Shown here piece after piece: positions 364 to 6,860 of a DNA stretch of 9,794 bases (positions within the stretch are counted from its first letter, which is position 1; the number at the start of each line of letters is the position of its first letter). The translations under genes were made by a program, and so were the position numbers. The notes under the pieces were generated by a model that saw nothing but the letters and a program-made list of their open reading frames with translations, had not been told where the DNA came from and made no database searches. The DNA comes from Candidatus Omnitrophota bacterium (lineage in GTDB: Bacteria > Omnitrophota > Koll11 > Gygaellales > Profunditerraquicolaceae): the NCBI GenBank assembly GCA_028719045.1, contig JAQULD010000059.1, positions 1 to 9,794 on the forward strand. Reading direction: 5' to 3'.

Positions 364-573
364 TTACTTATCTTTGATTTTTGACTGTGGGTTTACCTGC
401 GCCGCGGGGGTTTCATAATATTCCGCGGATAGATTTTTCTCCTGCACCGTGCCGATATCTTTCGTGAGGGATTCCAGGGTTTTCATGCATCCGGGGCCTT
501 TCATCCCTTTAATATGGACTTTCAGTTCCCCGTCATCATTTATGAACAACTCTATTTCATGTCTGTTAGCCAT
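364..573 (-). CDS. DUF2997 family small protein
   Basis: A 69-residue protein of unknown function. It looks like DUF2997: a short beta-type start (HEIELFINDDGELKVHIKG, residues 5-23), then GPGCMKTLESLTKDIGTV with a conserved-looking Cys29, then EYYET at 51-55. In cyanobacteria and other bacteria this family is commonly encoded next to DUF1257 (Ycf35), as it is here: the Ycf35-like gene ends 25 bases upstream. ATG 573 is chosen because GGAGG sits five bases before it; a GTG at 585 is in frame but overlaps that ribosome-binding site. The last 15 residues are polar and probably disordered. No enzymatic motif is visible. The likely role, inferred only from neighbours, is a partner of the Ycf35/Ycf46-like proteins. 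Confidence 0.85.
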   Translation of the reverse strand: MANRHEIELFINDDGELKVHIKGMKGPGCMKTLESLTKDIGTVQEKNLSAEYYETPAAQVNPQSKIKDK

Positions 574-598
574 CCTTACCTCCACTATCGTCGGGTGT

Positions 599-997
599 TT
601 AGTCCCATTTCCTGGCTACGAGCCTTATAGTGTTATCTTGTACTTTTTCCTCTTCGGCGATAACGTATCCCTGTTTTTTAAGTTCTTCGGTGACCTTGTT
701 GTAGGCGTATCTTTGTCTTATCCGTTTTATGAAATCCTGCTGCTGCCTTAACTGCTGGCTGTTTAATCCGTTTGTGTCGGCTACTATTTTGTAGTCGCCT
801 TTTTCAGTTTTCTCAAACCCTATATCCTTGCCGTTCTCGTCTTTAAGGACCAGGTCCACCTTGTGGATTACCCCGTCGGCGGTGCGCATGGACGCCGTTT
901 CCTTATATTCATGATATTCCCGGCCCAGGTCGATGATCGACTTGATCAAAACAGCCAGGCATCTTATTTCTAACCCGATAATCCCTCCTCCAGACAT
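599..997 (-). CDS. Ycf35-like protein (DUF1257)
   Basis: A 132-residue protein resembling cyanobacterial and plastid Ycf35 (DUF1257), a family without an established activity. The C-terminal half carries the family pattern: DIGFEKTEKGDYKIVAD (58-74), FIKRIRQRYAYNKV (89-102), then KKQGYVIAEEE (107-117) and the terminal DNTIRLVARKWD (121-132). The N-terminus (MSGGGIIGLEIRCLAVL) differs from the usual MSHF-type beginning but keeps the hydrophobic spacing. ATG 997 is chosen because it follows a very strong GGAGGAGGAG with a three-base gap. An upstream in-frame ATG at 1162 would add 55 residues translated from the inverted-repeat cluster and is rejected. It is followed after 25 bases by the DUF2997 gene, and together with the Ycf46-like ATPase this forms the cassette discussed in the findings. 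Confidence 0.86.
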   Translation of the reverse strand: MSGGGIIGLEIRCLAVLIKSIIDLGREYHEYKETASMRTADGVIHKVDLVLKDENGKDIGFEKTEKGDYKIVADTNGLNSQQLRQQQDFIKRIRQRYAYNKVTEELKKQGYVIAEEEKVQDNTIRLVARKWD

Positions 998-1000
998 ACG

Positions 1001-1010
1001 CTCCTCCTCC
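1001..1010 (-). promoter_or_regulatory. Strong ribosome-binding site of the Ycf35-like gene
   Basis: Minus-strand GGAGGAGGAG ends three bases before ATG 997. It decides the start of the Ycf35-like gene against the upstream ATG at 1162 and lies immediately downstream of the inverted-repeat cluster, so translation here does not depend on coupling to the zinc-ribbon gene. Confidence 0.85.
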
Positions 1011-1017
1011 CACACCA

Positions 1018-1160
1018 GTGGGACACCCGCGCAATGTTCCACACAAGCGCGGGGTGTTAGTGGGACACCCGCGCAATTCCGCCACCAGGCGGACACCGGC
1101 GCAATTCCACATAAGCGCCGGGTGAAAGCATAAGCGCGAATGTTAATGTGACACCCGCGC
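1018..1160. repeat. Cluster of GC-rich imperfect inverted repeats
   Basis: This gap between the zinc-ribbon gene and the Ycf35-like gene holds four copies of a core close to GACACCCGCGCAAT (about 1022-1035, 1064-1077, 1092-1105 and, degenerate, 1149-1163). Opposite-orientation partners are AGCGCGGGGTGTTA (1046-1059), AGCGCCGGGTGA (1114-1125) and AGCGCGAATGTTA (1132-1144). Neighbouring copies fold into hairpins: 1023-1057, 1047-1074, 1094-1123 and a weaker one at 1133-1160. Where the left arm changes from CACCCGCGC to CACCGGCGC, the right arm changes from GCGCGGGGTG to GCGCCGGGTG, so pairing is kept, including a single bulged G. No T-run follows, so this is not a standard intrinsic terminator. 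It resembles REP or BIME-type intergenic palindromes. Confidence 0.8.
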
Positions 1161-1166
1161 ATTGAA

Positions 1167-1880
1167 TCAATGCATGCCGAAAAAACACGCCCTGAATTGC
1201 AGCAGCATGACCAGTAATGCCGCGCCCAACAGGAATATGCGCCAGGACATGGCGCTTCTTAATTCTTCCAGGCGCACCGCGGTAGTTTCTTTTTTTAATT
1301 CGGTTTCAAGATTCCTGTTCCTTATCCAGTCGTCTATCACCGCTGAACTATACCCTTCTTTTCTGATCCTTCCCATTAACGCCTGTATGTCTATGGGAAG
1401 ATTATCATCCGTGGAGCTGTATATTTTACCGTCAATGTTCAAGGTGATCACGTTGTTAGATTCCCGCTGCGTGTCCCGGTCTCCCGACATCGTAAAATCA
1501 AGCCCGCATACCCAGCAGTTCTTTCTGCCGCTTTGATTTATCGCCTGGCAGGAAGGGCATTTCTTGAGCGTTTTGGCCGTTTTCTGGTATTCTTCGGCCA
1601 TTTTTGTCTTTAGCGGCTGCCTGCAGAAACTGCAATTCTGGGCCTCCGGGAGGTTTTCATTTCCGCAGTACGGGCAAAGCAGCTTATAATTAAGGTCTTG
1701 GTTAGCCTTGGCAGTCTGCTGGTGTTCTTCCTGGCAGACTGTATCCTTTATTTCGACCTGGATTTTTTTGTCGCCTACCTCCAGGAATTCAAAGCGCTTA
1801 GATATCCTGCAATCCTGGTTGACCAGGTCCTGGGGGTTGTTTTCCAGTCTTTCGAAACGCTTCAGGAATTTCTTAAGCAT
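1167..1880 (-). CDS. Double zinc-ribbon protein with C-terminal membrane anchor
   Basis: A 237-residue protein I cannot assign to a named family. It has a charged N-terminus (MLKKFLKRFERLE). Two zinc-ribbon modules follow: C69-x2-C72 with C83-x2-C86, and C108-x2-C111 with C122-x2-C125. Next is a segment NVITLNIDGKIYSSTDDNLP (143-162), then a charged helical stretch (about 165-210). A single hydrophobic helix (about 213-234, WRIFLLGAALLVMLLQF) ends three residues after Cys232 and Phe233-Phe234. With no signal peptide, the predicted topology is tail-anchored, with the zinc ribbons in the cytoplasm. The gene starts two bases after the stop of the Ycf46-like ATPase, so the two are almost certainly translationally coupled. 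Its likely role, by inference, is a membrane adaptor for that ATPase. The ribosome-binding site is weak, consistent with coupling. Confidence 0.85.
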   Translation of the reverse strand: MLKKFLKRFERLENNPQDLVNQDCRISKRFEFLEVGDKKIQVEIKDTVCQEEHQQTAKANQDLNYKLLCPYCGNENLPEAQNCSFCRQPLKTKMAEEYQKTAKTLKKCPSCQAINQSGRKNCWVCGLDFTMSGDRDTQRESNNVITLNIDGKIYSSTDDNLPIDIQALMGRIRKEGYSSAVIDDWIRNRNLETELKKETTAVRLEELRSAMSWRIFLLGAALLVMLLQFRACFFGMH

Positions 1881-1882
1881 TA

Positions 1883-3427
1883 TTACAATTCCAGTCTTCT
1901 TTCTTTAGGCTGCAGGATTTCTTTCGTAACGCTGCTGGCGATCCTTGCCCTGCATTTTGACCAGTTCCGCGTGCGGTCGATGTCTTCTTTCATAGTCACC
2001 GAAAGCGGGACGCTCTGTTTTATGTTCTTCAATATGTCTTGCGTGTTTATGTCCCTGTTTTCCAGGAAAGCGTCGTATAACGCCGATATGACCGCTTGTT
2101 CTATCTCGGCGCCGCTGTACCCGTCGCTTTCATGAGCCAGCAATTCCAGGTCGAAATTAGCGGGGGTCCGTTTTCTTTTTCTTAAATGTATCCCGAATAT
2201 CTCTTTCCTCTCGTCTTTAGAGGGCAGGTCAACGAAGAATATTTCGTCGAATCTGCCTTTACGCAAAAGCTCAGGCGGTAGAAGCTGGATATTGTTGGCT
2301 GTGGCGATCACAAATACAGAGGCTGTTTTTTCCTGGAGCCAGGTAAGGAATGTGCTGAATACCCTCGCAGAGGTCCCGGCGTCGGAAAATGTGGAACTCT
2401 GCACGCCGGATAATCCTTTTTCGATTTCATCGAGCCATAAAATGATCGGCGAAAGGGTTTCCGCGGTCTTGATGGCCCTGCGCATATTTTCTTCCGATGA
2501 ACCTACTATTCCGCTGAAAACCGCCCCGATATCCAGCCTTAAAAGCGGGATTTTCCAAAGATTGGAAACCGCTTTGGCGGTAAGGCTTTTGCCGCATCCC
2601 TGTATGCCGATAAGCATGATGCCTTTCGGCTGGGGCAGCCCGAAATCATGGGCCTTCTGGGTGAAAGCCACGCCTCTTTTGGAAAGCCAGTCTTTTAGGC
2701 AGTCCAAGCCTCCGACATTGTTGAACTCTTCTTTTAACTCGTAGTATTCCAGTAATTTGCTTTTTCTTATCGCCTGCTTTTTTTCTTCCAGTATCCCTTC
2801 GATGTCGCTTTCGTTGAGTTTCTTATCTATGACTATTACCCTGGCAAAAGCGTTTTCAGCTTCGGACCGGGTAAGCCCCAGAGCGGCCTTGACCAGCCGT
2901 TCTTTCGCTTCAGGGGTAAGGTCTATTTTTATTTCATCGTTCTTTGAAACGACATCGATGATTCCGTCAAGAAGCTCATTCGTTTCTTCGTAGGTCGGCA
3001 GGTCGTAATCCACCACCACCAGTTCTTTTTCGAGCTCTATCGGTACCGTTAAGACGGGGGAAAGGATTATCAGTGTTTCATAGGTGCTTTTCAAATTGTT
3101 AACCAGGTCGCGCAGTTTCCTGATCACGGTCTGGTCGTTTAAAAAAGAGTGGAAATCCAGGAACACGAACAGCGCCGGATCGGTGCATTTCTCCACATAA
3201 GTCAGCGCGTTCAGGGGATCGCGGGTAGCTTCGTCTATTTTTGAAGGGTCATCTTCCAATTTAAATATCCCGCGGGTAATAGACCAGAGAAAGAGTTTCT
3301 TGTGGCGCTGTTCAGCCATGGCTTTTAGCTTTTCCAGGATGCGGGCTTCTTCCCAGCTGACCAGGTAGATAAGCGGGTAGCGCGCCCTGATCAGGATGTC
3401 TATTTCCCTATCGCATTTAGTTTCCAT
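1883..3427 (-). CDS. Ycf46-like AAA+ ATPase
   Basis: A 514-residue cytosolic AAA+ protein of the CDC48/FtsH-like branch, matching the organisation of Ycf46. The N-terminal domain begins with REIDILIRARYPLIYLVSWEE (8-28), a Ycf46-like opening, and runs to about residue 225. The AAA domain shows Walker A GIQGCGKS (274-281), Walker B IILWLDE (328-334), sensor 1 IATANN (374-379), two candidate arginine fingers in RKGRFDE (Arg389, Arg392), and a sensor-2 region GYSGAEIEQAV (436-446). All catalytic residues look intact, so it should hydrolyse ATP and probably act as a hexamer on protein clients. ATG 3427 is chosen because AAGGAG lies seven bases upstream; an earlier in-frame TTG at 3460 lies inside the previous gene. 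Ycf46 has been linked to inorganic-carbon use in a cyanobacterium, which cannot be assumed here. Confidence 0.9.
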   Translation of the reverse strand: METKCDREIDILIRARYPLIYLVSWEEARILEKLKAMAEQRHKKLFLWSITRGIFKLEDDPSKIDEATRDPLNALTYVEKCTDPALFVFLDFHSFLNDQTVIRKLRDLVNNLKSTYETLIILSPVLTVPIELEKELVVVDYDLPTYEETNELLDGIIDVVSKNDEIKIDLTPEAKERLVKAALGLTRSEAENAFARVIVIDKKLNESDIEGILEEKKQAIRKSKLLEYYELKEEFNNVGGLDCLKDWLSKRGVAFTQKAHDFGLPQPKGIMLIGIQGCGKSLTAKAVSNLWKIPLLRLDIGAVFSGIVGSSEENMRRAIKTAETLSPIILWLDEIEKGLSGVQSSTFSDAGTSARVFSTFLTWLQEKTASVFVIATANNIQLLPPELLRKGRFDEIFFVDLPSKDERKEIFGIHLRKRKRTPANFDLELLAHESDGYSGAEIEQAVISALYDAFLENRDINTQDILKNIKQSVPLSVTMKEDIDRTRNWSKCRARIASSVTKEILQPKERRLEL

Positions 3428-3434
3428 TTTGTGG

Positions 3435-3440
3435 CTCCTT
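3435..3440 (-). promoter_or_regulatory. Ribosome-binding site deciding the Ycf46-like start
   Basis: Minus-strand AAGGAG lies seven bases before ATG 3427, which supports the 514-residue form of the ATPase over a longer one starting at TTG 3460. Confidence 0.8.
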
Positions 3441-3450
3441 TTGAACGGAT

Positions 3451-3633
3451 TTAGCCGCAATAACCATCCGGCTCATTCCCGCCGGCGTCTTCCCTGATAG
3501 CTTTGAGCACTCCCGCCGCGTCATTGTTCAGGGCGGTAAGCGCGAGTTTTCCGTCTTTACGGATATAGATTTCCAGGAAACCTTTGCTTTGGCTCCTGTT
3601 TTTTTGATTGTTTTGGGTTGATTTGCGGTCCAT
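3451..3633 (-). CDS. Small hypothetical protein (60 aa) upstream of the AAA+ ATPase
   Basis: A 60-residue protein that I do not recognise. It has a polar N-terminal tail rich in Asn, Gln, Ser and Lys (residues 1-17). A short predicted beta pair follows (GFLEIYIRKDGKLALTAL, 18-35), then a helix (NDAAGVLKAIRED), and it ends in GYCG. The gene fits snugly between cimA (27 bases upstream) and the Ycf46-like ATPase (23 bases downstream), and codon use resembles its neighbours, which supports it being real. The ribosome-binding site is weak (GGAAACC about six bases from ATG 3633). The LEIYIRKDGKL stretch resembles IELFINDDGEL near the start of the DUF2997 protein in the same cassette, so it may be a distant relative. 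Function unknown. Confidence 0.7.
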   Translation of the reverse strand: MDRKSTQNNQKNRSQSKGFLEIYIRKDGKLALTALNNDAAGVLKAIREDAGGNEPDGYCG

Positions 3634-3660: not shown

Positions 3661-5229
3661 CTATTCTACCTTATCTTTAAGCAATTTGTATTCAACGCTG
3701 TCAAACAGCGCCTGCCAGCTCGCTTCGATGATGTTGCCGGAAACGCCTATCGTGTTCCAGGTATCTTTTTCATCCTGTGATTGGATCAGAACGCGCACAC
3801 GCGCGGCAGTGCCGGCTTTTTCTTCGAGCACCCTTACTTTGAAGTCGGAAAGGCGCATTTTAGATAAAGTGGGATAAAATTCTTTTAGCGCCTTGCGTAA
3901 GGCGTTATCCAGGGCGTTAACCGGGCCGTCGCCCTCTGCCGCGGTATGCTCCATGGCCCCTTTTACTTTGACTTTTATTATCGCTTCTGAGGTGATTTTT
4001 TTATCTGTTTTCTTTTCCACCACTACGCGGAAATCCTCAAGTTCGAAGAATTTCTTGTATTTCTTAAACGCTCTTTTCAATAACAGTTCGAATGAAGCTT
4101 CAGCCGCTTCGAAGTGGTAACCTTCGTGTTCCAGCTTTTGCAGGAGTTTCAGTATCTTCTGGGTTTTGGGATCGTCTTTATTCAGGTCAAGTTCGAGGTC
4201 TTTTGCGCGGAGCAGGACACCTGTTTTGCCTCCGAGCTCTGACACCAGGAACCTGCGCCGGTTGCCGACAAGTTCAGGGTCGATATGTTCGTATGCTTTC
4301 GGGTTCTTCATGATGGCATTTATATGCATGCCGCCTTTATGCGCGAAAGCGGATATTCCCGTGTAAGGCTGGCCGCTTGCCTGTTTCATATTGCTTATCT
4401 CGCTGACAAAAAGCGAGACCTTTGTCAGGTTCTTTAATTTTTCATCGGTGATGCAGTCGTAGCCCATTTTAAGCTTAAGATTGGCTATGATGGGGATGAG
4501 GTCAGCGTTCCCGCACCTTTCGCCGTAGCCGTTTATCGTCCCTTGAATCATGTCCGCCCCGGATTCGACCGCGGAAAGCGAGTTTGCCACCGCAAGGCCG
4601 GCGTCGTTGTGGCAGTGGATGCCGATACAGACGCCTACCTCAGGTTTTATTTCCCGGATCACTTTCTGTACTGTAAAGGGGAGGCTTCCGCCGTTAGTGT
4701 CGCATAAGACAATGGCTTTCGCTCCCGCTCCCCTAGCGGCGGTTATACACCGCAGGCTGTATTCTTTATTTTCGGCGTAGGCGTCGAAGAAATGTTCCGC
4801 GTCATAAAAAACTGTCAGGCCGCTTGCGGCCAGGAAACTTACCGTGTCCTTGATCATGTCCAGGTTTTCTTCAAGGGTGGTTTTGATCACGTCCTTTACG
4901 TGCAGGTCCCAGGTTTTTCCCACGATAGTAATGAACTTTGCCCCTGATTTTATGAGGTCGCCGATATTCTTATCATGGCTTGCCTTGATACCCGCGCGCC
5001 TGGTCATGCTGAAAGCGACAAGTTTTGCGTTCTTAAGGCGGACCTTCGACATCTTTTTGAAGAATTCCATGTCCTTGGGGTTAGAGCCCGGCCAGCCGCC
5101 TTCGATGTAATGGATACCCACGTCATCGAGTTCTTTGGCGATCTGGACCTTGTCCATGGCCGAATAGGAAATACCTTCTCCCTGAGAGCCGTCCCTTAAA
5201 GTAGTATCGTATAAAATTATCTCGCGCAT
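3661..5229 (-). CDS. cimA: (R)-citramalate synthase
   Basis: Condenses pyruvate and acetyl-CoA to (R)-citramalate, the first step of threonine-independent isoleucine synthesis. It is a 522-residue, two-part enzyme of the isopropylmalate synthase superfamily. The TIM barrel shows YDTTLRDGSQGEGI (7-20), GGWPGSNPKDMEFF (44-57), the metal-binding HCHND (205-209) and NGYGERCGNADL (233-244). A C-terminal LeuA-type regulatory domain occupies about 395-522 (HTAAEGDGPVNALDNAL at 428-444). The NPKDMEFF segment and overall layout favour the Geobacter/Leptospira-type CimA over LeuA or homocitrate synthase, although LeuA-like specificity cannot be excluded from sequence alone. ATG 5229 has GGGAAG upstream; an in-frame ATG at 5334 lies inside lysC and is rejected. 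It follows lysC by 32 bases. The intact regulatory domain suggests feedback control, probably by isoleucine. Confidence 0.9.
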   Translation of the reverse strand: MREIILYDTTLRDGSQGEGISYSAMDKVQIAKELDDVGIHYIEGGWPGSNPKDMEFFKKMSKVRLKNAKLVAFSMTRRAGIKASHDKNIGDLIKSGAKFITIVGKTWDLHVKDVIKTTLEENLDMIKDTVSFLAASGLTVFYDAEHFFDAYAENKEYSLRCITAARGAGAKAIVLCDTNGGSLPFTVQKVIREIKPEVGVCIGIHCHNDAGLAVANSLSAVESGADMIQGTINGYGERCGNADLIPIIANLKLKMGYDCITDEKLKNLTKVSLFVSEISNMKQASGQPYTGISAFAHKGGMHINAIMKNPKAYEHIDPELVGNRRRFLVSELGGKTGVLLRAKDLELDLNKDDPKTQKILKLLQKLEHEGYHFEAAEASFELLLKRAFKKYKKFFELEDFRVVVEKKTDKKITSEAIIKVKVKGAMEHTAAEGDGPVNALDNALRKALKEFYPTLSKMRLSDFKVRVLEEKAGTAARVRVLIQSQDEKDTWNTIGVSGNIIEASWQALFDSVEYKLLKDKVE

Positions 5230-5261
5230 CGTTTTACTTCCCTGTGGTTTTGCCAAAGCCC

Positions 5262-6479
5262 CTATTTGGAAAGGCCGAACGCCTTGTGCAGTGCCTTTAC
5301 CGCGGACTCGGCATATTTTTTCTTGATGATGCATGAAATGCTTATTTCAGAGGTGGAGATCATTTCAATGTTTATTTTGTTGTCTGCCAGCGTCTCGAAC
5401 ATTTTCCCAGCGACACCGGAATGTGTTTTCATTCCCACGCCGACTATGGATATCCTCGCTATGTCGTCGTCTTCCACGGTTTCAAGGCCGCCTATATCCC
5501 TGGCGGCTTTCTTGGTCAATTTTATAGCTTCCTGTGCGTCGCTTTTCGGCACGGTAAACGAGATGTCGGTAAGCCTTGTGTGCGAAACGTTTTGCACGAT
5601 CATATCGACGTTTATGCCGCCGCTGGAAAGCGCGTTAAATATCTTCGCCGCGATGCCGGGTTTGTCCGGGACATTGCAGATAGTGATCTTTGATTCATTC
5701 TTGGTCAGGGTTATTCCTGTAACCAGGACATCTTCCATGTGCTTTACCTCCTTGATGATCATAGTGCCGGGATTATCCGCGAATGAAGACCTTACATGTA
5801 TCGGGACATTGAACTTCTTGGCGACTTCTATGGAGCGCGCCTGCATTACCTGGGCGCCCAGGGAAGCCATTTCCAGCATTTCGTCATAGGTTATTTCTTT
5901 TATTTTTCTCGCTTCGGGCTCTATCCTCGGATCCGTGGTATAGATGCCTTCGACATCGGTATAAATCTCGCATTCGTCAGCGGAAAGTGTTTTAGCTAAC
6001 GCCACCGCCGTAAGGTCAGAACCGCCGCGGCCTAAGGTGGTGATATCCATGTCAGGGGTCATGCCCTGAAAACCGGCCACGATCACTATTTTGCCCTTCT
6101 TTAATTCTTCATGGATCTTTTCCGAACCGATCTTTACTATCCGGGCTTTCGTGTGGCTGGTATCGGTGATGATGCCGACCTGTGAGCCGGTAAATGATAT
6201 AGCTTCATAACCCAGTTTGTGTATAGCCATGGCCAGGAGCGCTACCGATATCTGCTCTCCTGTGGAAAGGAGCATATCCATTTCCCTTTTTGGGGGATTA
6301 TTGGATATTTTTTCAGCCAGTTCTATCAGTTCGTCGGTAGTATCGCCCAGAGCCGAAACAACCACTACCAGGTCACAGCCCTTTTTTTTGTAACTTACCA
6401 CGCGCCTGGCGACGTTCTTTATCCTGTCGGGGTTGGCAACGGAAGAGCCGCCGTATTTCTGCACCACAAGTTTTTTCAT
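5262..6479 (-). CDS. lysC: Aspartate kinase, monofunctional, with two ACT domains
   Basis: Phosphorylates L-aspartate, the entry step to lysine, threonine and methionine. The 405-residue length matches the monofunctional (Bacillus LysC-like) class. The kinase domain shows KYGGSSV (8-14), LSTGEQISVALLA (71-83), TLGRGGSDLTAVALA (148-162) and EIYTDVEGIYTTDPR (171-185). The ACT domains occupy about 253-330 (VPDKPGIAAKIFNAL) and 341-405 (VGVGMKTHSGVAGKMF), and they normally bind lysine or threonine for feedback inhibition. ATG 6479 has GGAGAG seven bases upstream. The gene begins 19 bases after the end of the broken PilZ frame and is followed after 32 bases by cimA. A second start inside the gene could make a separate ACT-only subunit (see the 5736-5753 entry). 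Confidence 0.96.
   Translation of the reverse strand: MKKLVVQKYGGSSVANPDRIKNVARRVVSYKKKGCDLVVVVSALGDTTDELIELAEKISNNPPKREMDMLLSTGEQISVALLAMAIHKLGYEAISFTGSQVGIITDTSHTKARIVKIGSEKIHEELKKGKIVIVAGFQGMTPDMDITTLGRGGSDLTAVALAKTLSADECEIYTDVEGIYTTDPRIEPEARKIKEITYDEMLEMASLGAQVMQARSIEVAKKFNVPIHVRSSFADNPGTMIIKEVKHMEDVLVTGITLTKNESKITICNVPDKPGIAAKIFNALSSGGINVDMIVQNVSHTRLTDISFTVPKSDAQEAIKLTKKAARDIGGLETVEDDDIARISIVGVGMKTHSGVAGKMFETLADNKINIEMISTSEISISCIIKKKYAESAVKALHKAFGLSK
5736..5753 (-). promoter_or_regulatory. Internal ribosome-binding site and ATG in lysC (possible beta-subunit start)
   Basis: Within lysC, minus-strand AAGGAGG (5747-5753) stands eight bases before the in-frame ATG of Met248 (5736-5738). 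Initiation here would give a 158-residue protein containing both ACT domains. Known relatives, such as Bacillus subtilis aspartokinase II and the Corynebacterium enzyme, make an overlapping beta subunit of about 160 residues from just such an internal start. The match in position and the near-perfect Shine-Dalgarno make this a likely functional site. Confidence 0.7.
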
Positions 6480-6498
6480 CTAATTACTCTCCGGATGA

Positions 6499-6801
6499 TT
6501 ACGTTTTTCTCACAAAGGCGATGCCGGTGACGTATTTCTCACGGTCGTGTATATTAAGGCAGTAGGTGACCTTTCCCCAAAGGCCGGTCGCGTCTTCGCA
6601 ATGAGTAAAAGGGAATTTTATCTACAACTTTATGTTTTCTTTCTCTTGAATGGATTTATCGCTGATAAAGCAAAGCCCTCCGGGATTTATATTGTCTACC
6701 GGGAAATCGGACGCTACAGCATATTGTTTGGGTTCGATTATCCTGCAGCTGAGTTTTGAATCAGGAACCTTTACCCTGCCCCAACGCCGTTTGTCTTCCA
6801 T
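6499..6801 (-). pseudogene. PilZ-domain protein interrupted by an in-frame amber codon
   Basis: PilZ domains bind cyclic di-GMP. This frame encodes 59 residues, then TAG (6622-6624), then 40 further residues to a TAA at 6499-6501. Before the stop: KRRWGRVKV (4-12, an RxxxR motif) and VDNINPGGLCF (35-45, corresponding to the D-x-S-x-x-G motif, with Asn in place of Ser). After the stop: LWGKVTYC and KYVTGIAFV, which match the last PilZ strands. The full 100-codon length is that of a complete single PilZ domain. A single G-to-T change from GAG would create the TAG. ATG 6801 is preceded by AAGGAAGG; an in-frame GTG at 6807 abuts that site. If the stop is obeyed, the 59-residue product lacks part of the barrel and is probably inactive. 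It lies 59 bases after apgM and 19 before lysC. Confidence 0.75.
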
Positions 6802-6860
6802 CGCCACCTTCCTTTTAGTTTAAGATTATTCCTGCGCTTAATGCAACTTTTGAAACAAAT

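What the first reader, a model, noticed from the sequence alone, without database searches (positions are those of the whole stretch)
364..3633. Ycf46/Ycf35/DUF2997 cassette outside photosynthesis, with a membrane-tethered zinc-ribbon partner
The sequence shows a Ycf46-like AAA+ ATPase, a double zinc-ribbon tail-anchored protein, a Ycf35-like protein, a DUF2997 protein and a 60-residue protein in consecutive order. Ycf46 and Ycf35 are named from plastid and cyanobacterial genomes, and none of the three main families has a settled biochemical function. No photosynthesis gene is visible, and the ferredoxin gene that can accompany DUF1257/DUF2997 elsewhere is not present. A reasonable inference is an AAA+ remodelling module recruited to the membrane through the zinc-ribbon protein, with Ycf35 and DUF2997 as adaptors or clients.
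Basis: partly seen in the sequence, partly recalled or inferred. Interest (0 to 1): 0.72.

Follow-up and report, generated by a model that had tools for sequence, protein, structure and literature searches.

The report
Membrane-docked Ycf46 ATPase cassette
A five-gene unit in a non-photosynthetic bacterium carries the same little-understood motor protein (Ycf46) and partners that algae keep in their chloroplasts, plus a probable membrane protein bearing a repeated short tag that looks like a plug for the motor, which gives a concrete way to test what this old mystery module does.

Summary
On the minus strand at 364-3633 lie five closely packed genes: a 60-aa protein (P60), a Ycf46-type ATPase, a double-zinc-ribbon protein with one C-terminal hydrophobic segment (ZR), DUF1257/Ycf35 and DUF2997, in an Omnitrophota-like contig. 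In one Omnitrophota order 9 of 117 genomes have DUF1257; all 9 have ATPase-ZR-DUF1257-DUF2997 in this order with P60 upstream. The ATPase-DUF1257-DUF2997 core is not tied to photosynthesis: it occurs in many bacterial phyla, two archaeal MAGs, plasmids and phages. (1) ZR starts with two copies of RFxxLE; this motif recurs at a terminus of proteins encoded beside Ycf46-type ATPases in seven sequence-unrelated groups, but in none of four ZR relatives examined that lack the cassette. (2) P60 ends in [FY]CG in all ten loci of this group, and two viral cassettes show the same tail. Best reading: a two-tier p97/Vps4-like remodelling ATPase docked to the membrane through RFxxLE, with DUF1257 and DUF2997 as core partners. 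Docking and function are inferred. The motif is absent beside nine cyanobacterial ATPases and most loci of a second sample, which added no new carrier family.

The parts
3451..3633 (-). P60: 60-aa protein, beta-hairpin-like motif LEIYIRKDGKL, C-terminus GYCG
   Evidence: same gene directly upstream of the ATPase in 9 of 9 cassette-bearing genomes of the order, all ending [FY]CG; A6: I24, C59, G60 invariant in 10 rows
1883..3427 (-). Ycf46-type ATPase, 514 aa: degenerate N-terminal AAA-like domain (about 1-200) plus active AAA domain (Walker A GIQGCGKS with Cys278, Walker B ILWLDEIEK)
   Evidence: phrog_8638 4e-157; model residues 1-494 align to p97 D1-D2
1167..1880 (-). ZR: 237 aa; twin N-terminal RFERLE / RFEFLE motifs, two zinc ribbons (8 invariant Cys), LNIDGKIYSSTD segment, C-terminal hydrophobic stretch
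   Evidence: (A3, 18 rows)
1842..1859 (-). first RFxxLE motif of ZR (RFERLE, residues 8-13), inferred docking element
   Evidence: position computed from residue numbers
1779..1796 (-). second RFxxLE motif of ZR (RFEFLE, residues 29-34), inferred docking element
   Evidence: position computed from residue numbers
1182..1238 (-). C-terminal hydrophobic segment of ZR (residues 215-233), inferred membrane anchor
   Evidence: Kyte-Doolittle mean 2.17 over 19 residues
599..997 (-). DUF1257 (Ycf35-like), 132 aa
   Evidence: PF06868 79.3 bits; model
364..573 (-). DUF2997, 69 aa, with the Gly and Cys that are invariant in A5
   Evidence: PF11211 38.8 bits; A5
1008..1163 (.). GC-rich direct repeats (4 imperfect copies of a 28-nt unit) in the gap between ZR and DUF1257; a 14-base core of them matched none of 262 fetched loci

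Best explanation
The cassette encodes an ATP-driven protein-remodelling machine of the p97/Vps4 kind that works at the cytoplasmic face of the membrane. Shown: gene content, order, conservation, motifs, predicted fold of the ATPase. Inferred, in order of confidence: (1) The Ycf46-type ATPase forms a ring with a degenerate upper AAA tier and one active tier, and threads or remodels proteins. (2) ZR is its dedicated membrane receptor: its two N-terminal RFxxLE motifs dock onto the ATPase (most likely the inactive N-terminal tier), the zinc ribbons present a further partner, and the C-terminal segment anchors it. In some other lineages the receptor is swapped for an unrelated protein (TPR, NHL propeller, signal-peptidase-like or other membrane protein) that keeps the RFxxLE plug. 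(3) DUF1257 and DUF2997 (with P60, a hairpin protein ending in Cys-Gly) act as small core partners that select or hold the substrate. (4) The cysteine in the Walker A loop makes the motor redox-sensitive.
For: Order kept in 9 of 9 DUF1257-bearing genomes out of 117. AAA model aligns over p97 D1-D2. Motif RFxx[LI]E at a terminus in the first sample (90 loci: window, 80 genome loci, 9 phage/plasmid loci): 24 of 473 same-strand ORFs within 3.5 kb of the ATPase versus 2 of 425 farther away and 0 of 239 near but opposite-strand; 200 shuffles mean 0.37, max 4; six permuted motifs 0. The carriers fall into seven groups without detectable similarity. ZR relatives without the cassette lack it (0 of 4 examined), those with it have two copies each (9 of 9, and the window). 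In two genomes no other convincing gene has the motif near its N-terminus. Motif neighbour present in 8 genomes without a PF06868 match, which points to the ATPase as partner. Walker A Cys in 71 of 90 loci; Cys269 of Synechocystis slr0374 is listed among the light-reduced peptides (PMC13214033, passages) and falls where the Walker A Cys lies in cyanobacterial homologues (269-274 in seven of nine).
Against: No interaction data and no complex prediction. The motif is not universal: 24 of 90 loci in the first sample, none of nine cyanobacterial rows. Second sample of 90 loci: 10 loci have it (7 of 30 Armatimonadota, 2 of 30 Planctomycetota, 1 of 30 Myxococcota). Eight of those 90 loci repeat the first sample; among the 82 new ones it is 6 of 209 same-strand versus 0 of 111 opposite-strand ORFs, Fisher p 0.096, and five of the six are the Armatimonadota NHL proteins already known, the sixth (L179) possibly chance. 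These loci show only about 1.5 kb on each side; two more Armatimonadota carriers (L149, L159) have the motif in frames without a matching ATG. Homologous carriers are not independent, so the first sample's Fisher p of 6e-8 is too small. Docking surface unknown. P60-DUF2997 kinship rests on 18 columns. Walker A Cys is Thr, Ala or Ser in 19 of 90 loci.
Confidence: 0.47

Rival explanations
1. Thiol/iron-sulphur module: the ATPase, DUF2997 and P60 serve maturation or repair of redox or radical-SAM enzymes; the invariant DUF2997 Cys and the P60 Cys-Gly tail carry a chemical group or metal, and membrane docking is secondary.
For: Invariant Cys in DUF2997 (31 of 31 rows); Cys-Gly tail of P60 in all 10 rows of A6 and in two viral cassettes; radical-SAM/Fer4_12 neighbours in L007, L031, L039 (Pfam) and look-alikes by eye in L004, L035, L060; fed7 beside DUF2997/ycf35 in cyanobacteria (PMC4284462, passage); ycf35/ycf46 among plastid genes whose presence in red algae goes with habitat, which the authors link to iron (PMC5940233, passages); a light-responsive Cys in slr0374.
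Against: No Fe-S or radical-SAM gene recognised by eye in this window or in the stretches around the Omnitrophota cassettes printed (no profile search was made there); 43 of 80 genome loci have neither DUF1257 nor DUF2997 within 3 kb; P60 is lacking in most loci.
Confidence: 0.21
2. RFxxLE proteins are substrates, not receptors: the terminal motif is an entry tag by which the ATPase grips and unfolds them.
For: The motif lies at N- or C-termini, as degrons and loading signals do; Pvc15, an AAA ATPase of injection systems, handles effectors through N-terminal signal peptides (PMC11495950, start of abstract in a search listing).
Against: Mostly one carrier per locus, two copies in ZR, and no sign of the motif spreading over two genomes fit a dedicated receptor better than a client pool.
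Confidence: 0.16
3. The motif binds DUF1257 or DUF2997 rather than the ATPase.
For: In Omnitrophota all parts sit together.
Against: Eight motif-bearing genomes have no PF06868 match (G005, G007, G008, G011, G018, G020, G024, G028); PF11211 was not searched there and the MAGs may be incomplete.
Confidence: 0.11
4. Anti-phage or mobile-element system (IetA-like ATPase).
For: PADLOC IetA models match, but only over the AAA domain (258-481 of 514); the ATPase or the cassette rides on phages and plasmids.
Against: No other PADLOC component among the five proteins beyond weak chance matches; phages carry the cassette themselves; in at least four genomes and the window the unit lies between a citramalate-synthase-like and a valS-like gene (by eye); red-algal plastids hold both genes.
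Confidence: 0.05

Closest known systems
Synechocystis slr0373-slr0374(Ycf46)-slr0376 operon
   Same: Ycf46 ATPase in a three-gene operon; cyanobacterial loci here show a small RHH-like gene, the ATPase, then DUF1257. Passages report stress-responsive expression, unknown function, and that inactivating slr0374 reduces activity of carbonic anhydrase EcaB (PMC7496141, passages; the primary papers were not seen)
   Different: No ZR, no RFxxLE neighbour, no P60; upstream partner is another small protein that mostly ends in LVPC; that slr0376 is the DUF1257 gene is inferred from synteny, not tested
Cyanobacterial duf2997-ycf35-fed7 cluster
   Same: DUF2997 and DUF1257 adjacent (PMC4284462, passage)
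   Different: Ferredoxin instead of ATPase, ZR and P60
Phage/plasmid AAA-DUF1257-DUF2997 sets (Rhizobium phage RHph_I4, Paenibacillus pPPM1a, IMG/VR contigs)
   Same: Same three core families close together (10 of 16 viral loci)
   Different: Extra genes vary; no ZR match; small protein with the CG tail seen only in L091 and, as the end of DUF2997, in L105
p97/Cdc48 and Vps4 (AAA remodelling ATPases)
   Same: Two-tier AAA architecture, Vps4/D2-like active domain; recruitment by short linear motifs on partner proteins (recalled)
   Different: No p97 N domain or MIT domain seen; first tier degenerate; RFxxLE is not one of their known motifs (recalled)
Pvc15 AAA ATPase of contractile injection systems
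   Same: AAA ATPase acting on proteins through N-terminal peptides (PMC11495950, start of abstract in listing); some spirochaete Ycf46-type genes sit among baseplate genes
   Different: No injection-system genes recognised by eye near the Omnitrophota cassettes

Membership tests
Ycf46-type ATPase (SpoVK/Ycf46/Vps4 group, phrog_8638) | full-length similarity incl. N-terminal non-canonical domain plus AAA with Walker A/B and lid | tested here: met
   phrog_8638 525 bits over 6-506; AAA and AAA_lid_3 above cut-off; 1-494 aligns to p97 D1-D2
DUF1257 / Ycf35 (PF06868) | PF06868 above gathering score over the whole domain | tested here: met
   79.3 vs 22.2 bits, profile 4-103 of 103
DUF2997 (PF11211) | PF11211 above gathering score; Gly and Cys that are invariant in A5 | tested here: met
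   38.8 vs 24.1 bits; G15 and C29 in A5, 31 rows
DUF2997 (for P60) | PF11211 match and the invariant inner Cys | tested here: not met
   no PF11211 match; profile comparison covers only 18 columns of the hairpin, probability 76; the inner Cys is absent. DUF2997-like hairpin at most
Double zinc ribbon (PF12773) | two ribbons of paired Cys, score over cut-off | tested here: met
   28.2 vs 27.3 bits; eight Cys invariant in 18 rows
Tail-anchored membrane protein | single C-terminal transmembrane segment, no signal peptide, membrane localisation | tested here: inconclusive
   one C-terminal hydrophobic stretch by hydropathy only; localisation not testable
CDC48/p97 | NCBIfam CDC48 model above cut-off, two intact AAA domains | tested here: not met
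   TIGR01243 116.6 vs cut-off 802.65 bits; one canonical Walker A in the sequence (read by eye)
IetA anti-phage ATPase | NCBIfam IteA/IetA equivalog cut-off | tested here: not met
   NF042959 79.9 vs 510 bits
eCIS/injection-system ATPase | located among baseplate/tube genes | tested here: not met
   none recognised in the window or in the Omnitrophota stretches, by eye; seen in spirochaete loci
KA1 fold (for DUF1257) | clear structural match well above background | tested here: inconclusive

The most novel reading that the evidence does not exclude
Ycf46-type ATPases use a hitherto undescribed docking code: a terminal RFxxLE peptide (variant near LIxLE[LI]D at the C-terminus in Anaerolineales) carried by exchangeable, unrelated receptor proteins, which assigns one conserved motor to different places in the cell, the membrane in Omnitrophota. 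This would be a bacterial parallel to the MIM and SHP/VIM recruitment motifs of Vps4 and p97 (recalled), inside a protein family kept in algal plastids.
Probability: 0.38. Interest if true: 0.82.

Novelty: new variant of a known kind. Interest (0 to 1): 0.62.

Why it matters
Ycf46 and Ycf35 have long been listed in plastid genomes without a settled biochemical role. Showing that they form, with DUF2997, a core spread over bacteria, archaea and phages frees the question from photosynthesis, and the twin RFxxLE motif plus the conserved Cys-Gly tail give small, cheap experiments (peptide binding, tail variants) that can decide what the motor is attached to. If the docking code is real, it also predicts partners of Ycf46-type ATPases by a simple motif search.

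Tried and rejected
Tried without result: genome scan with ZR alone (38 pattern matches, none a relative); protein search with P60 (only itself), solved instead by looking at the same position in relatives; BLASTP of P60 against DUF2997 (nothing); sequence search of solved structures for DUF1257 and DUF2997 (best E 0.0049, nothing convincing); Foldseek for DUF1257 (no match under 1e-3). Weighed and dropped: photosynthesis-derived cassette (and the wide spread); ATPase fusions suggested by very long open frames in L188, L214, L218, which look like GC-rich read-through frames; Walker A Cys as a marker of DUF1257 or P60 presence, since cassettes with Thr there exist (L002, L005, L056, L057, L058, L066, L069); RFxxLE as a genome-wide client tag, since the DNA pattern is no commoner than its backward control in G133 (9 vs 16) and G155 (22 vs 37) and, of the 30 of 31 places read, only ZR has it near the N-terminus of a convincing gene (L253 has a look-alike near a C-terminus). 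The tree of 73 ATPases shows the motif label scattered (11 changes, at least 8 forced by supported branches), so it is not one clade's quirk, but gains and losses cannot be told apart; ATPase rows under 430 aa and the phage/plasmid rows were left out of that tree. The hope that a second sample would confirm the motif independently was only weakly met: new loci alone give p 0.096 and no new carrier family. Literature statements rest on searches of one open-access library. Judged by titles and starts of abstracts, none listed describes the ATPase-DUF1257-DUF2997 set, and 'RFxxLE' gave no paper; most of the 32 papers with Ycf46 and 31 with Ycf35 were not opened. Papers of which passages were seen: PMC4284462, PMC12016546, PMC13131479, PMC5874918, PMC5940233, PMC7496141, PMC13214033.
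Full report
What is there. The window (9,794 bases; no whole genome held) carries on its minus strand, between a citramalate-synthase-like gene (3661-5334) and the start of a valyl-tRNA-synthetase-like gene (both named by eye; the latter about 1-337), five genes: P60 (3451-3633), the ATPase (1883-3427), ZR (1167-1880), DUF1257 (599-997) and DUF2997 (364-573). Gaps are 2-27 bases except 169 bases between ZR and DUF1257, which hold GC-rich direct repeats; a 14-base core of these matched none of 262 fetched loci. Pfam confirms DUF2997, DUF1257, AAA plus lid and, narrowly, the double zinc ribbon; P60 has no family. The closest ATPase relatives are up to 84% identical and, where named to a taxon, mostly Candidatus Omnitrophota; ZR has 43 listed relatives including itself, the others 39-55% identical.

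Conservation of the whole unit. Among 117 genomes drawn evenly over the phylum, 2 have DUF1257. Among 117 of the same order, 9 have DUF1257 and 14 have a ZR match at 1e-8. All 9 DUF1257 genomes have ZR directly before DUF1257, and the ATPase before ZR. P60 stands directly upstream of the ATPase in all 9: L010, L011, L132-L135, L137, L138 and L136 (in L137 it lacks an ATG and was seen by eye). In all nine and in the window it ends in [FY]CG, although the aligned proteins are only 16-41% identical to that of the window (A6; L136 not in A6). The tail [FYLW]CG occurs in 14 of 4,292 ATG-started ORFs of 45-120 aa over the loci held then; 10 of the 14 are P60, including L033 from a lineage outside this order (-LCG), two are in viral cassettes (L091, a 46-aa protein right after DUF2997; L105, DUF2997 itself), two look unrelated (L018, L083). 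Five further ZR matches occur in genomes without a DUF1257 match; in the four whose surroundings were fetched no ATPase or DUF1257 was found nearby.

Spread of the core. The 80 best ATPase loci of the genome collection come from at least a dozen bacterial phyla, two Hodarchaeota MAGs, and one Methanoregulaceae MAG whose ATPase groups with Armatimonadota and may be a binning error. Within 3 kb on the same strand, 25 of 80 have DUF1257 and DUF2997 (both Hodarchaeota have both), 10 DUF1257 only, 2 DUF2997 only, 43 neither. Of 16 viral loci (IMG/VR) 10 carry all three. Rhizobium phage RHph_I4 and plasmids of Paenibacillus and Bacillus carry annotated ATPase-DUF1257-DUF2997 sets; the Geminocystis plasmid has them with other genes between. 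ATPase matches at 1e-90: 85 of 121 Armatimonadota, 46 of 149 Planctomycetota, 98 of 140 Myxococcota genomes; among the 30 loci taken from each, DUF1257 was within reach in 2, 9 and 27. The 9 Omnitrophota genomes have no type I or type II reaction-centre match, while the control Synechococcus does. So 'outside photosynthesis' is right, but the plastid and cyanobacterial form looks like the special case.

The RFxxLE motif. ZR begins with two copies of RFxxLE (A3, 18 rows: R8, F9, E13, R29, F30, L33, E34 invariant). Reading neighbours of other ATPases showed the same motif at the N-terminus of proteins with no other likeness: NHL propellers in Armatimonadota, TPR proteins in Hydrogenedentota and Planctomycetota, zinc-ribbon membrane-type proteins in Myxococcota, and at the C-terminus in small spirochaete proteins and signal-peptidase-like zinc-ribbon proteins of Planctomycetota. 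Count in the first sample of 90 loci: 24 of 473 same-strand ORFs within 3.5 kb, against 2 of 425 farther away and 0 of 239 near on the opposite strand; shuffled proteins give 0.37 on average (maximum 4 in 200 runs), six permuted motifs give 0; 24 of 90 loci have it. This sample is also where the motif was noticed. After removal of the motif the 25 carriers fall into seven groups without detectable similarity (the zinc-ribbon group joins Omnitrophota and Myxococcota). A second sample of 90 loci gives 10 of 228 same-strand against 0 of 126 opposite-strand ORFs (7 of 30 Armatimonadota, 2 of 30 Planctomycetota, 1 of 30 Myxococcota loci). Eight of these loci hold an ATPase already in the first sample; the 82 new ones give 6 of 209 against 0 of 111 (Fisher p 0.096), five of them the Armatimonadota NHL protein again and one (L179) possibly chance. 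Two more Armatimonadota carriers lie in frames whose ATG does not precede the motif (L149, L159). So the second sample is consistent but adds no new carrier family, and the motif is confined to part of the ATPase family: nine cyanobacterial rows and most sampled Myxococcota and Planctomycetota do without it within the stretch seen. Eight genomes with a motif neighbour have no PF06868 match, which points to the ATPase as the partner. All 9 cassette ZRs and that of the window carry two copies; 0 of 4 ZR relatives without the cassette carry any. A DNA pattern for RFxx(L/F)E plus a hydrophobic residue finds 9 and 22 places in two genomes, fewer than its backward control (16 and 37), and of the 30 of 31 places read only ZR has it near the N-terminus of a convincing gene: a dedicated plug rather than a common tag, in these two genomes. 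In Anaerolineales a polytopic-looking protein after the ATPase ends in LIxLE[LI]D or close to it in L027, L036, L038, L050, L070 and L073, a possible variant.

How it most likely works. A two-tier AAA motor is held at the membrane by ZR, whose N-terminal plugs bind the motor; DUF1257, DUF2997 and P60 are the small constant partners that present or hold what is remodelled. The loop cysteine could tie its activity to the thiol state of the cell. Shown here: genes, order, motifs, predicted folds. Inferred: every binding step, membrane topology and the nature of the substrate. The only published phenotype seen is reduced activity of carbonic anhydrase EcaB when slr0374 is inactivated, reported second-hand in PMC7496141 (passages), where the enzyme is called extracellular; an enzyme outside the cytoplasm that depends on a cytoplasmic motor would fit a role at the membrane, but this is an inference.

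Verdict.

Noticed in passing
window 6482-6807 (-): PilZ-like ORF (named by eye) is interrupted by an in-frame stop after residue 61; the frame stays open beyond it for 40 residues. Pfam finds nothing in the first part. Described only.
   Followed up: partly
window 1008-1163: Four imperfect copies of a 28-nt GC-rich unit between ZR and DUF1257; a 14-base core matched none of 262 loci held.
   Followed up: partly
L075, L077, L079, L081-L085, L089, upstream of the ATPase: Cyanobacterial Ycf46 genes are preceded by a ribbon-helix-helix-like (by eye) 115-129-aa protein with a CPxC motif and, in eight of nine, the C-terminus VPC: a second case of a small upstream protein with a Cys at its end.
   Followed up: no
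L045 5752-9546, L004, L057 9846-10442: Ycf46-type genes in Treponema sit among phage-baseplate-type genes; a myxobacterial cassette is followed by an eCIS_core protein.
   Followed up: partly
L031, L039, L044: In Planctomycetota the cassette is followed by a zinc-ribbon membrane protein (signal-peptidase-like by Pfam in L031), a TPR-like protein and a PilT-like ATPase (by eye), and preceded in L031 and L039 by a radical-SAM protein; a P60-like hairpin gene lies directly upstream of the ATPase in L039 and, weakly, in L044.
   Followed up: partly
L007 6284-6862, L004 3369-3974, L035 7375-7935: Radical-SAM/4Fe-4S-type proteins beside the ATPase or its partners end with a short DUF2997-like hairpin (VTINAEGSLTMTGF in L007), suggesting a shared small module.
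   Followed up: no
L057 4312-7263, L059 2259-4328: FHA-domain proteins precede the ATPase in these two loci, L057 from Myxococcota.
   Followed up: no
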